Positions 35,290 through 38,312 of a DNA stretch of 38,312 nucleotides are shown one piece after another (the first letter of the stretch is position 1; each line of letters opens with the position of its first letter). The notes below the pieces were generated by a model that did no database searches, was not told the origin of the DNA, and worked only from the letters and a program-made list of their open reading frames with translations. Source of the DNA: Nitrospira sp. GTDB lineage: Bacteria; Nitrospirota; Nitrospiria; Nitrospirales; Nitrospiraceae. Made by a program: the position numbers and the translations under genes. The stretch covers positions 1-38,312 of the forward strand of contig VGXF01000013.1 in the NCBI GenBank assembly GCA_016873435.1. The letters run 5' to 3'.

Positions 35290-35352
35290 GAGTTACGTTT
35301 CCGTCAGTAGGTTCACATGCCCAAGGCGTGGCGCGCGGAGACGACCTACTAG

Positions 35353-35826
35353 TTATCCGATCCGCTCTTCCGCTTCTTGGCGAAGATTTTTGAAGAACGT
35401 CCGCAGTAATTCTTGGCTCTCCTGCTCCAAGACTCCACCGATCACTTCAACGTGATGATTCAGCCGTCGCTCAGCCGGCACGTTCAAGACTGATCCGCAG
35501 GCGCCGGCTTTTGGGTCGAGCGCGCCAAACACCAGCCGGGGAATCCGCGCCAGAATCATTGCCCCAATACACATGGTGCAGGGTTCGAGCGTCACGTACA
35601 GCGTCGTGTCCGGCAGCCGCCACGACCCAGATTGCGCCGCGGCTTTCCGGATAGCCACTAGTTCGGCGTGCGCCGTTGGGTCCTGCCAGATTTCTCGAAG
35701 ATTATGAGCCTGCGCCAGGATCTCGTCGTCCCGAACCAGTACGGCGCCAATCGGTACTTCGCCTAGCGCGGCTGCTTTACGGGCTTGCTCCAGCGCGAGC
35801 CCCATGTAGTTGCTAGCGCGATTCAT
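35353..35826 (-). CDS. tadA: tRNA-specific adenosine deaminase TadA
   Basis: 157 residues from ATG 35826. HAE at 53-55 and PCTMC at 82-86 form the zinc-deaminase site; NLREIWQDPTAHAE is typical of TadA. It converts A34 to inosine in tRNA-Arg(ACG). A GTG six codons upstream is in frame but the family starts near MNRASNYMGLALEQA. tRNA-Ser lies just downstream on the same strand. Confidence 0.94.
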   Translation of the reverse strand: MNRASNYMGLALEQARKAAALGEVPIGAVLVRDDEILAQAHNLREIWQDPTAHAELVAIRKAAAQSGSWRLPDTTLYVTLEPCTMCIGAMILARIPRLVFGALDPKAGACGSVLNVPAERRLNHHVEVIGGVLEQESQELLRTFFKNLRQEAEERIG

Positions 35827-35887
35827 CGAGGGGCATCTTAGCACAGGGGTCTGCGATTGACCAAGACGGGGTACCGACTACCACTGC

Positions 35888-36772
35888 TCATTTCTGCCAT
35901 TCGAACCCATAGCGTAATTGGATGGCCGTGTATCGCTGGATCAGCCCGCTCTGGTCGAGCGGCATGTCCCGTTCGTGCAGTACGGCCAGTTCGTAATTCT
36001 TCCACCGCAGGGCGAGGCCGATGATCCAGTCCAGCTCGGTCGGGGTGAGCGTATCGCTTTTGGAGCGGTCAGTGAACCAGTTGGTGTCGGCAAAGACGAC
36101 GACTTTGTTCTTGTACAGATCAAGATCACCATGTGCGACATAGCGGAAGAGCGCGCGGCCAGTATTGTCGGGGCGGGCAAAGTAGCTTGCGTTATGAAAC
36201 AGCCAGCCGCCGCCCATGTAGAAGGTCAGGTTTTGGTCAGGAAATTGCTGCCGCCACCAGTCGTATTGGTTGCCTGGCGTGAAGTTAAAATTGACGAGCG
36301 CGTCCGCGTAGGTCTGCTTGATGCCTCTCTTGTCCAGCGGCGCGTCTTGTTCGTATTGCACCCGCCAATTCCATTGTCGGACGGTTCCGGTGAAGGCGAA
36401 GGTCTTATCCCATTCAGAGAGCTCGATCCAGCCCTTCCCTCGGTCCGAGAAAAAGTTCTGATCCGTATAGAACTGCAGGTAATTGCCGAGCAGCTCGGTT
36501 TCCAGGTGGATCATGTGCCGCATCCCGACCAGTCCGCTGTTGTCGGGCCGCGCGGCAAAGCTCGGGTTGTGTGGGAACGCCGCAGTGAGCAGATAGCCTT
36601 TTAGCCAAGGGGCGGTCTCCTCTCGCTGTTCTGTCTGGGATTCGTGCGTTTCTGCTAGCGCGGGAAGCGGGCGGCCGTATTTTTCCAGCGCCAACACGGA
36701 ATTCGCAGACAGCAGCAGAAGGATGACCGCCAGGGCAATGATCGGGGGGCGGTGCGAGTCGGGGGTGCGCAG
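35888..36772 (-). CDS. Secreted outer-membrane-type protein with a non-standard or disrupted start
   Basis: The body (from about 36697 down) is 269 residues with barrel-like aromatic strands (NLTFYMGGGWLFHNASYFA, GFEWQK at the end) and a repeated pattern FAARPDN/YFARPDN. I do not recognise the family with certainty. A clear signal peptide (IIALAVILLLLSANSVLA) is encoded upstream of the first GTG, but no ATG, GTG or TTG precedes it in frame before the stop at 36809-36811. A CTG at 36772 has GAGGT about 8 bases upstream and would give 294 residues starting (M)RTPDSHRPP. Alternatively, one base too many in the G6 run (36744-36749) has split it from starts in the next frame. Confidence 0.65.
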   Translation of the reverse strand: MRTPDSHRPPIIALAVILLLLSANSVLALEKYGRPLPALAETHESQTEQREETAPWLKGYLLTAAFPHNPSFAARPDNSGLVGMRHMIHLETELLGNYLQFYTDQNFFSDRGKGWIELSEWDKTFAFTGTVRQWNWRVQYEQDAPLDKRGIKQTYADALVNFNFTPGNQYDWWRQQFPDQNLTFYMGGGWLFHNASYFARPDNTGRALFRYVAHGDLDLYKNKVVVFADTNWFTDRSKSDTLTPTELDWIIGLALRWKNYELAVLHERDMPLDQSGLIQRYTAIQLRYGFEWQK

Positions 36773-36815
36773 TGGCGTAGACCTCAGCTCTTTGAATGCA
36801 CGACACGCTCACCAA

Positions 36816-37073
36816 TTCGCGACGTGTCCATAGAGGGTTTTTTGGGTGTACATCGTCTCATAATTAACCTCACAATCTAAGAATAGTATACATGAATTTC
36901 GTCCAAAAGTCAAATATATAGTACTATGAAATTGTCAATCATTTCATCAATTTACACCTATCTCCAATCTTGGTGGCGTGTGTGTCGGTGCCGCTGGATG
37001 AAGTTCATGATCAAGCTCATTTGGTGGAAATAAAAAAAGATAAATACTAGAGTCACAAGAGGGGTACTCCACT
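36816..37073. other. AT-rich intergenic stretch before the repeat genes
   Basis: 258 bases, far richer in A+T than the sequence to the left. It contains the perfect palindrome ATAGTACTAT (36918-36927), a possible operator, and AGAGGGG (37058-37064), the ribosome site of the next gene. No convincing promoter pair or gene was found. Confidence 0.5.
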
Positions 37074-38213
37074 ATGCCAATTCAAGATCCTGTTCCTGCA
37101 GCAAATACATCTCTCACAACGCCCACGATTAGTTCTCCCGTATTATCGGGAACAGCAACGGGGACCTATACACTAGCTGGGACGCCCACGTTTTCAACAC
37201 TGGCTCTGACGTCATGGACCACTGCTACGCGCCCAGCATCCCCAACTAATTATCAAGTAGGATTTAATACTTCCTTAAATGCTAAAGAAATTTGGGATGG
37301 AACTTATTGGCGATTAGACCCCACAGGACCTGGTCAAAGCAATACGCAACGAGCCATCTTTGGGTATGGATACAATGGATCAAACGTCTCCATGACCAAT
37401 CAAGTCTCTGCTGCCGGTGTGGTGGCAGCCGATACCACGGGGGTGGGCACAGCACGATTCGATCCTGCGGCAGCGGGCTATGGCACCGATAAAGCGATTT
37501 TTGGGTATGGGTACGCAGGATCATACGTCTCGTTGACCAATCTAGTCACCAATCAAGGTGTGGTAGGGTCGGATGTCACTGGGGTCGGCACAGCACGATA
37601 CGGTCTTGCGGCAGCGGGCTATGGCACCGATAAAGCCATCTTTGGGTATGGATACACTGGATCAGCCGTCTCGTTGACCAATCTGGTCACCAATCAAGGT
37701 GTCGTGGGGTCTAATGTCACTGGGGTCGGCACGGCACGATACAGTCTCGCGGCAGCGGGCTATGGTACGGATAAAGCGATCTTTGGGTATGGGGACACAG
37801 GACCACATCCAGGTGTCTCAATGACCAACCTGGTAACCAATCAAGGTGTCGTGGGGTCTGATGTCACGGGGGTCGGGACAGCACGAAAAAATCTTGCGGC
37901 AGCGGGCTATGGTACGGATAAAGCGATCTTTGGATATGGGACCACAGGATCAAATCCAGGCGTCTCCATGACCAATCTCGTCACCAATACCGGTGTTGCG
38001 GGTACTGATGTCACGGGGGTCGGGACAACACGAAAAGATCTTTCTGCGGCTGGCTATGGCACCGATAAAGCGATTTTTGGGTATGGGTACACAGGATCAT
38101 ACGTCTCACTGACCAATCTGGTTTCCAATACGGGTGTGGTGGCAACAGATACCACTGGGGTGGGGACTGCACGGGGTGATGTTGCGGCAGCGGGATTTTC
38201 ATTAACGGCATAA
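37074..38213 (+). CDS. Phage-like or surface repeat protein with six near-identical repeats
   Basis: 379 residues, no signal peptide. The first ~90 are Thr/Ser/Pro-rich (TTPTISSPVLSGTATGTYTL) and end with WDGTYWRLD, a phrase type common in phage tail and appendage proteins. Residues 93-379 are six repeats of 47-49 residues of the form KAIFGYGYTGSxVSLTNLV, xNxGVVGxDVTGVGTAR, LAAAGYGTD, similar to kelch-like propeller repeats. Six such repeats could close one beta-propeller. AGAGGGG lies 9 bases before ATG. A paralogue starts 19 bases downstream. Base composition differs from the rest of the window, suggesting transfer. Function is not known. Confidence 0.75.
   Translation: MPIQDPVPAANTSLTTPTISSPVLSGTATGTYTLAGTPTFSTLALTSWTTATRPASPTNYQVGFNTSLNAKEIWDGTYWRLDPTGPGQSNTQRAIFGYGYNGSNVSMTNQVSAAGVVAADTTGVGTARFDPAAAGYGTDKAIFGYGYAGSYVSLTNLVTNQGVVGSDVTGVGTARYGLAAAGYGTDKAIFGYGYTGSAVSLTNLVTNQGVVGSNVTGVGTARYSLAAAGYGTDKAIFGYGDTGPHPGVSMTNLVTNQGVVGSDVTGVGTARKNLAAAGYGTDKAIFGYGTTGSNPGVSMTNLVTNTGVAGTDVTGVGTTRKDLSAAGYGTDKAIFGYGYTGSYVSLTNLVSNTGVVATDTTGVGTARGDVAAAGFSLTA
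37350..38213 (+). repeat. Six tandem ~141-147 base coding repeats
   Basis: Units begin at about 37350 and then every 141-147 bases. Stretches such as GCGGCAGCGGGCTATGG recur almost unchanged at the DNA level. This points to recent expansion by recombination or gene conversion. Confidence 0.9.
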
Positions 38214-38232
38214 ACGAGACGGAAATTTCTCT

Positions 38233-38312
38233 ATGCCACTTCAAGAATTTATTCCTGTCGCAAATACTACTTTTACTACCCCCACAATTAGTTCTCCTGT
38301 ATTATCAGGAAC
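38233..38312 (+). CDS. Start of a tandem paralogue of the repeat protein (cut by window edge)
   Basis: ATG 38233 opens a frame that runs off the window. Its first 26 residues (MPLQEFIPVANTTFTTPTIS and on to SSPVLSG) match the start of the previous gene (MPIQDPVPAANTSLTTPTIS), and the DNA is also very similar. It therefore begins a second copy in tandem. The repeats and 3' end lie outside the window. Confidence 0.75.
   Translation, partial: MPLQEFIPVANTTFTTPTISSPVLSG

What the first reader, a model, noticed from the sequence alone, without database searches (positions are those of the whole stretch)
37074..38312. Tandem phage-like repeat genes with fresh internal repeats
Six nearly identical repeats lie in one gene, and a second gene with the same N-terminus begins 19 bases later. 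The high DNA identity suggests active expansion and exchange of units, as in receptor-binding or surface-variation systems. The WDGTYWRL phrase hints at a phage appendage. This could be part of a prophage, a tailocin, or an array of surface proteins.
Basis: partly seen in the sequence, partly recalled or inferred. Interest (0 to 1): 0.6.

Follow-up and report, generated by a model that had tools for sequence, protein, structure and literature searches.

The report
Six-bladed phage tail propeller gene
At the very end of a bacterial contig lies a piece of virus DNA whose gene makes a closed six-bladed propeller protein; the number of blades is locked at six across hundreds of relatives in uncultured phages and only one face varies, so it is most likely a phage tail part that grips host cells, not a growing repeat array.

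Summary
The repeats and the tandem second gene are real. The units are 74-88% identical in DNA, not nearly identical, and they are not expanding. In 169 distinct complete relatives, nearly all from IMG/VR viral contigs, 161 have exactly 6, 12 or 18 units; the 12s and 18s split into rings of six. AlphaFold2 predicts a closed six-bladed kelch-type propeller (pLDDT 93.8; best PDB matches are kelch domains, VIA-align Z about 34). Variation sits in the BC and DA loops, which in kelch domains form the ligand face. DA residues change faster than the neutral expectation while the rest is strongly conserved. Relatives occur 1-4 in tandem with 4-50 bp gaps, in some contigs beside T4-like neck genes and in one beside an Mtd-like DGR. 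Best reading: receptor- or glycan-binding tail propellers of T4-like and other uncultured phages. No match was found in 50,697 phage records; Pfam and PHROGs hold no model for the ring. The window holds only a phage fragment of about 1.3 kb at a contig end. No prophage is shown; an assembly join or a small insertion cannot be told apart. One Oligoflexia MAG carries a true chromosomal insertion of a similar two-gene cassette.

The parts
35888..36796 (-). last clearly bacterial gene next to the phage-derived segment (secreted protein of unknown function, context only)
   Evidence: Homologues in relatives of the host, in most beside tadA; nucleotide homology ends near 36692; the 5' end with the signal peptide is read from the sequence
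36797..37039 (.). junction zone between bacterial and phage-derived DNA; exact break point not determined
   Evidence: GC falls from 60.8% (1-36690) to 39.4% (36797-37073); no DNA match in the host relatives or in the viral loci
37040..37049 (+). ATAAATACTA, like a T4-type late promoter, 34 bases before the start codon
   Evidence: Core ATAAATAC occurs once in the window; in the viral loci ATAAATACT favours the coding strand (21 v 8) and 10 of 21 lie within 80 bp before an ORF, among them a family gene in L030 and gp13 in L003. Consensus match only; mononucleotide shuffles gave no overall enrichment
37074..38213 (+). propeller gene, 379 aa
37074..37352 (+). N-terminal region (residues 1-93), probable attachment module
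   Evidence: Residues 1-27 81% identical to L132, whose C-terminus is a different, tail-fibre type (PHROG tail); 'TPTISSPVLSGTATGTYTLAGTP'-like arrays in L112 and L135
37353..38213 (+). six-bladed propeller ring (residues 94-379)
   Evidence: AF2 model of 37344-38210: pLDDT 93.8, pTM 0.91; kelch folds in PDB
37353..37493 (+). blade unit 1 (47 aa)
37494..37634 (+). blade unit 2 (47 aa)
37635..37775 (+). blade unit 3 (47 aa)
37776..37922 (+). blade unit 4 (49 aa)
37923..38069 (+). blade unit 5 (49 aa)
38070..38210 (+). blade unit 6, C-terminal, lacking the GTDK end that leads into a next blade
38233..38312 (+). start of a second tandem gene with the same N-terminus, cut by the contig end

Best explanation
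The gene encodes a tail-appendage protein of a tailed phage, most likely T4-like. An N-terminal attachment region carries one closed six-bladed kelch-type beta-propeller. The conserved repeat residues build the ring (supported by model and by blade counts). The BC loops and the two residues after the conserved Arg in each DA loop, which lie on one face, form a variable binding surface that most likely recognises a host surface glycan or protein (inferred). Phages carry one to four such genes in tandem, sometimes two or three rings in one chain, giving a small set of different binding faces. In this window the segment from about 37040 to the contig end is phage-derived. It is a fragment joined to bacterial sequence, not a prophage that can be seen; whether the join is an assembly or binning error or a real insertion is open.
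For: Relatives in IMG/VR: 361 and, with the profile, 484 stretches; the best, L003, is 82% identical in DNA and carries downstream a gp13 neck protein / head-tail adaptor Ad2 of T4-like phages. Unit counts 6/12/18 in 161 of 169 distinct proteins, in clean groups of six with linkers. AF2 ring model pLDDT 93.8, pTM 0.91; Foldseek kelch domains E 5e-14, TM 0.83; VIA-align Z 34 at 2.2 A over 272-276 residues. Entropy over 479 distinct units peaks at positions 7-12 and 36-37 (2.3-3.6 bits) and is low elsewhere. Window v L003: all 12 DA codons changed amino acid, core dN 0.04 and dS 0.50; over 40 independent pairs DA 80% changed v 67% expected if neutral (z 6.4), BC 66% v 66%, core 17% v 62%. BC and DA loops form the substrate face of kelch domains (PMC4668279). 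Tandem genes with 4-50 bp gaps. N-terminal region shared with a tail fibre gene; in another family member the N-terminal domain matches tail fibre genes of Pelagibacter and Synechococcus phages.
Against: No virion proteomics, structure or binding data. The first AF2 run, on the full protein with a badly registered alignment, gave pLDDT 47, and the N-terminal region has no confident model. Of the five models of the ring only the best is above 84. BC-loop change is only at the neutral level, so diversifying selection is indicated only for the DA residues, and the z-scores assume independent codons. Phage origin of this exact segment rests on similarity, a GC drop and one promoter-like motif.
Confidence: 0.72

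Rival explanations
1. On where the DNA belongs: the contig end is an assembly or binning artefact. A fragment of a free T4-like phage genome was joined to a bacterial contig, so the bacterium does not carry the gene.
For: Segment lies at the contig end; 39% GC junction; closest relative on a T4-like contig, and T4-like phages are typically lytic (established knowledge); no terminase (control rings) in the bin and no match to the L003 flank; no relative in 269 other genomes of the class.
Against: No reads available; no microhomology at the join was shown; L330 shows that a real chromosomal insertion of this kind can occur.
Confidence: 0.6
2. On where the DNA belongs: a real insertion of a phage tail cassette into the bacterial chromosome, kept or in decay, as in the Oligoflexia MAG L330.
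For: In L330 (168 kb contig) a six-unit propeller gene plus its usual partner gene sit between potC-like and HPF-like genes; relative G073 has about 2 kb less DNA between the matched points in the two flanking genes.
Against: Here the N-terminus is the phage type with no export signal, and the other side of the insertion is not seen.
Confidence: 0.3
3. Repeat expansion and contraction create phase-like surface variation.
For: Head-to-tail units with 74-88% DNA identity.
Against: Counts fixed at multiples of six; first and last units keep rank between genomes; units differ at many synonymous positions.
Confidence: 0.04
4. On function: the propeller is a virion decoration that binds sugars or particles in the environment (or other virion proteins) rather than the infection receptor.
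For: Weak profile similarity to Photorhabdus PLL/PHL propeller lectins, E about 3e-5; eukaryotic kelch domains bind peptides; phage CBB carries kelch proteins, one of them in the virion (PMC5259590).
Against: Excess replacement at DA residues and a DGR-diversified Mtd-like gene next to one array fit host recognition better.
Confidence: 0.25

Closest known systems
Kelch-domain proteins (Keap1, KLHL12, KLHL20) and the designed SAKe six-bladed proteins
   Same: Six blades of four strands in a closed ring; BC and DA loops on one face
   Different: 12-18% sequence identity, no Pfam kelch hit, GYG in place of the GG pair (own knowledge of the kelch motif); phage-borne, not joined to BTB
Kelch-like proteins of large phages (Pectobacterium phage CBB, Burkholderia phage BcepSaruman, Pseudomonas phage PS119XW)
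   Same: Kelch-type propellers encoded by phages; one CBB protein is in the virion (PMC5259590)
   Different: About 10-22% identity by Foldseek; not described as tandem near-consensus rings
Uncultured Caudovirales phage proteins A0A6J7XFV6, A0A6J5PIS4, A0A6J5PED2 in BFVD
   Same: Same family: 49-68% identity, TM 0.95-0.96
   Different: Uncharacterised; nothing published on them was found in the library searched
Photorhabdus PLL/PHL lectins
   Same: Weak repeat similarity and propeller fold
   Different: These have seven blades and bind sugars (own knowledge); here six blades
Mtd and other DGR target proteins
   Same: Variable surface on a constant scaffold in a phage tail; a neighbour in L007
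   Different: No adenine-templated pattern at the variable codons here

Membership tests
Kelch-type six-bladed propeller (fold) | six blades of four antiparallel strands forming a closed ring | tested here: met
   (predicted model, not solved)
Kelch repeat (Pfam sequence family) | match to a Pfam Kelch model | tested here: not met
   No kelch hit for the window protein nor among 60 members at E 0.1; so filed by fold, not by sequence family
Phage tail fibre / receptor-binding protein | located in tail or baseplate gene region of phage genomes | tested here: met
   Neighbours gp13, gp14, tail and fibre PHROGs in related viral loci; not testable in the window itself
Phage tail fibre / receptor-binding protein | present in the virion and binds a receptor | not testable with these tools
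   needs proteomics and binding assays
Prophage | packaging, head and integration genes linked in the same genome | tested here: inconclusive
   Terminase_6N not found in the bin with a ringing control; gp23 control silent; no match to the L003 flank; integrase not searched; contig ends at the segment
DGR target | variable codons derived from adenines of a template repeat | tested here: not met
   Q, K, E and W codons and ordinary third bases at the variable DA positions in the family; a template on a missing contig cannot be excluded
PLL/PHL propeller lectin | seven blades | tested here: not met
   six units

The most novel reading that the evidence does not exclude
Uncultured phages use a shared, undescribed propeller scaffold as a binding repertoire: tandem genes and multi-ring chains, each with six constant blades and a separately diversified DA/BC face, combined with interchangeable N-terminal attachment modules; bacteria occasionally capture the cassette and export the propeller (Tat-like N-terminus in the Oligoflexia copy).
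Probability: 0.3. Interest if true: 0.68.

Novelty: new variant of a known kind. Interest (0 to 1): 0.48.

Why it matters
A scaffold found in hundreds of environmental viral contigs, but in none of 50,697 phage records searched and without a Pfam or PHROGs model, would be a natural counterpart of designed propeller binders. It offers clear residues to test for host recognition in phages that have not been cultured. It also warns that tandem repeats in such genes reflect ring closure, not expansion.

Tried and rejected
Open-ended expansion: rejected by the blade counts. DGR diversification of the rings: rejected by codon make-up. Prophage or tailocin: not supported. A small peptide MKFMIKLIWWK upstream: no copy in the viral loci. 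T4-type late promoter by simple counts: no enrichment over mononucleotide shuffles for three 8-mers, only strand and position bias for ATAAATACT. First structure job on the whole protein with alignment A1: pLDDT 47, discarded. Low-complexity masking as the reason for no hits in phage records: a local control with the filter on at that database size still finds 48%-identical relatives. First codon test on near-identical pairs had only 4 pairs and was uninformative; the plain nonsynonymous-to-synonymous contrast was replaced by a comparison with the neutral expectation, which removed the apparent selection on the BC loops. GTDB scans: nothing with plain patterns, one Oligoflexia MAG with the profile.

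Full report
Observation. The ORF 37074-38213 (379 aa) has six units of 47, 47, 47, 49, 49 and 47 residues that start at AIFGYG. TRF and the repeat finder give the same array at period 141/147. Unit DNA identity among units 1-5 is 74-88%. A second gene starts at 38233 with the same N-terminus, and the contig, which is exactly the window, stops at 38312. So the features are there, but 'nearly identical' and 'fresh' are wrong.

What surrounds it. The window up to about 36.7 kb reads as an ordinary bacterial chromosome at 60.8% GC. In 50 of 61 genomes searched (own genome included) there is DNA homology to 35300-37073; it runs through tadA and the next secreted-protein gene and ends near 36692. 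The six relatives inspected carry other bacterial genes beyond that point. From about 36800 GC falls to 39%. Similarity to viral DNA starts at 37054 (L132). ATAAATACTA at 37040, 34 bases before the ATG, looks like a T4-type late promoter; in the viral loci this kind of motif favours the coding strand and the space before ORFs, although plain counts against shuffles were not enriched.

Relatives. IMG/VR holds 361 stretches with this query and 484 with its profile. The closest, L003, is 82% identical in DNA over 1 kb. Its contig carries, about 5 kb downstream, a gp13 neck protein matching Synechococcus, Methylophilales and Caulobacter T4-like phages. Other loci carry gp13, gp14 and a DNA-polymerase-like gene nearby (the last two read from sequence). 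No relative was found in 50,697 phage records; with L080 as query the listed matches cover only its N-terminal domain, in tail fibre genes among others. The local control shows that the filter would not hide the ring. Pfam and PHROGs have no model for the ring; weak or scattered hits only. In the host's class 269 other genomes have none. In GTDB species genomes only one MAG has it.

A locked number. Of 169 distinct complete proteins 157 have six units, two have 12 and two 18. In the 12s and 18s the units form groups of six separated by linkers of about 8-27 residues. The eight exceptions have 2-5 units; two lie side by side in one locus (L064) and one (L218) clearly lacks a called unit in a gap, so some are detection or assembly effects. 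A freely slipping array would not give this.

Structure. The ring alone with 111 sequences gives an AF2 model with pLDDT 93.8 and pTM 0.91, all beta. Foldseek's best PDB matches are kelch domains of KLHL20, KLHL12, KLHL17 and Keap1, and the designed SAKe proteins are also high; VIA-align gives Z about 34 over 272-276 residues. In BFVD the best matches are uncharacterised proteins of uncultured Caudovirales at 49-68% identity. This is a predicted fold, not a solved one.

One variable face. Over 479 distinct units the entropy is 2.3-3.6 bits at positions 7-12 and 36-37 and below 1.6 at nearly all others (position 14 is 2.0 and position 45 is 1.9). By the kelch topology positions 7-12 lie between strands B and C, and 36-37 between D and the next A. 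In an antiparallel four-strand blade both connections lie on the same face, and in Keap1 this is the substrate face (PMC4668279). I could not inspect coordinates, so the placement rests on the strand order in the model. Between the window and L003 every one of the 12 DA codons changes amino acid, while the core has dN 0.04 and dS 0.50. Over 40 independent pairs DA residues change in 80% against 67% expected for neutral codons at the core's synonymous distance, BC residues in 66% against 66%, and the core in 17% against 62%. Tandem neighbours give a similar picture. So DA residues look diversified, BC loops look unconstrained, and the scaffold is strongly conserved. Codon usage at the variable sites is not that of a DGR.

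Tandem genes and modules. Of 79 viral loci 42 have two to four family genes; all 48 adjacent same-strand pairs are 4-50 bp apart, like the 19 bp here. N-termini are exchanged: the window's first 27 residues are 81% like L132, which then continues into a different, fibre-type domain. A partner gene (MxSKLNSEFNYRxQ...) follows the array in 28 loci and has no family model.

Prophage or not. Terminase_6N has no match in the bin although the control rings; gp23 gave none but its control was silent; the flank of L003 has no match. Integrase was not searched. I therefore call this a phage-derived fragment and put an assembly or binning join at 0.6 and a real insertion at 0.3. The second is not far-fetched: in the Oligoflexia MAG the cassette of propeller plus partner sits between a potC-like and an HPF-like gene inside a 168 kb contig, while relative G073 has about 2 kb less between the matched points of the two flanking genes (383 against 2340 bases). 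That copy has a Tat-like N-terminus (SRRKFF, read from the sequence).

Mechanism. Supported by computation: repeat number, predicted ring, place of the variability, gene neighbourhood in relatives. Inferred: attachment by the N-terminus to the tail, binding by the DA/BC face to a host surface molecule, tandem copies as a small repertoire. Rival roles, such as a decoration that binds environmental glycans, remain open.

Novelty. Kelch proteins in phages are known (PMC5259590). A near-consensus six-blade family in tandem, with a diversified face, was not found described in the papers searched, which cover open-licence papers only. I file it as a new variant of a known kind.

Noticed in passing
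L330:9770-11576 (Oligoflexia MAG BroJett040): A phage-type six-unit propeller gene with a Tat-like N-terminus and its partner gene inserted between a potC-like and an HPF-like gene; relative G073 has the flanking genes close together, about 2 kb shorter. Possible capture of a phage binding module by a bacterium.
   Followed up: partly
L007:7674-10175: Complete-looking DGR next to two propeller genes: Mtd-like target, template repeat and reverse transcriptase; template and variable repeat share 94 of 115 bases, and by reading the alignment 20 of the 21 differences are at template adenines.
   Followed up: partly
L071:4927-5904 and L323:1927-2904: A sister repeat family (GWFGGG..TVDRITYATDTATASVRGPL) also with six units and a similar short N-terminus; probably another propeller type.
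   Followed up: no
L003:1054-1701 and other viral loci; L330:10935-11576: A conserved partner protein of about 200 aa directly after the propeller genes (28 loci), without Pfam or PHROGs model; kept with the propeller in the bacterial insertion.
   Followed up: no
L003:2151-6342: Glycosyltransferase-like and nucleotide-sugar epimerase-like genes lie between the propeller and the neck gene in a T4-like viral contig; possibly surface or DNA sugar modification (sequence reading).
   Followed up: no
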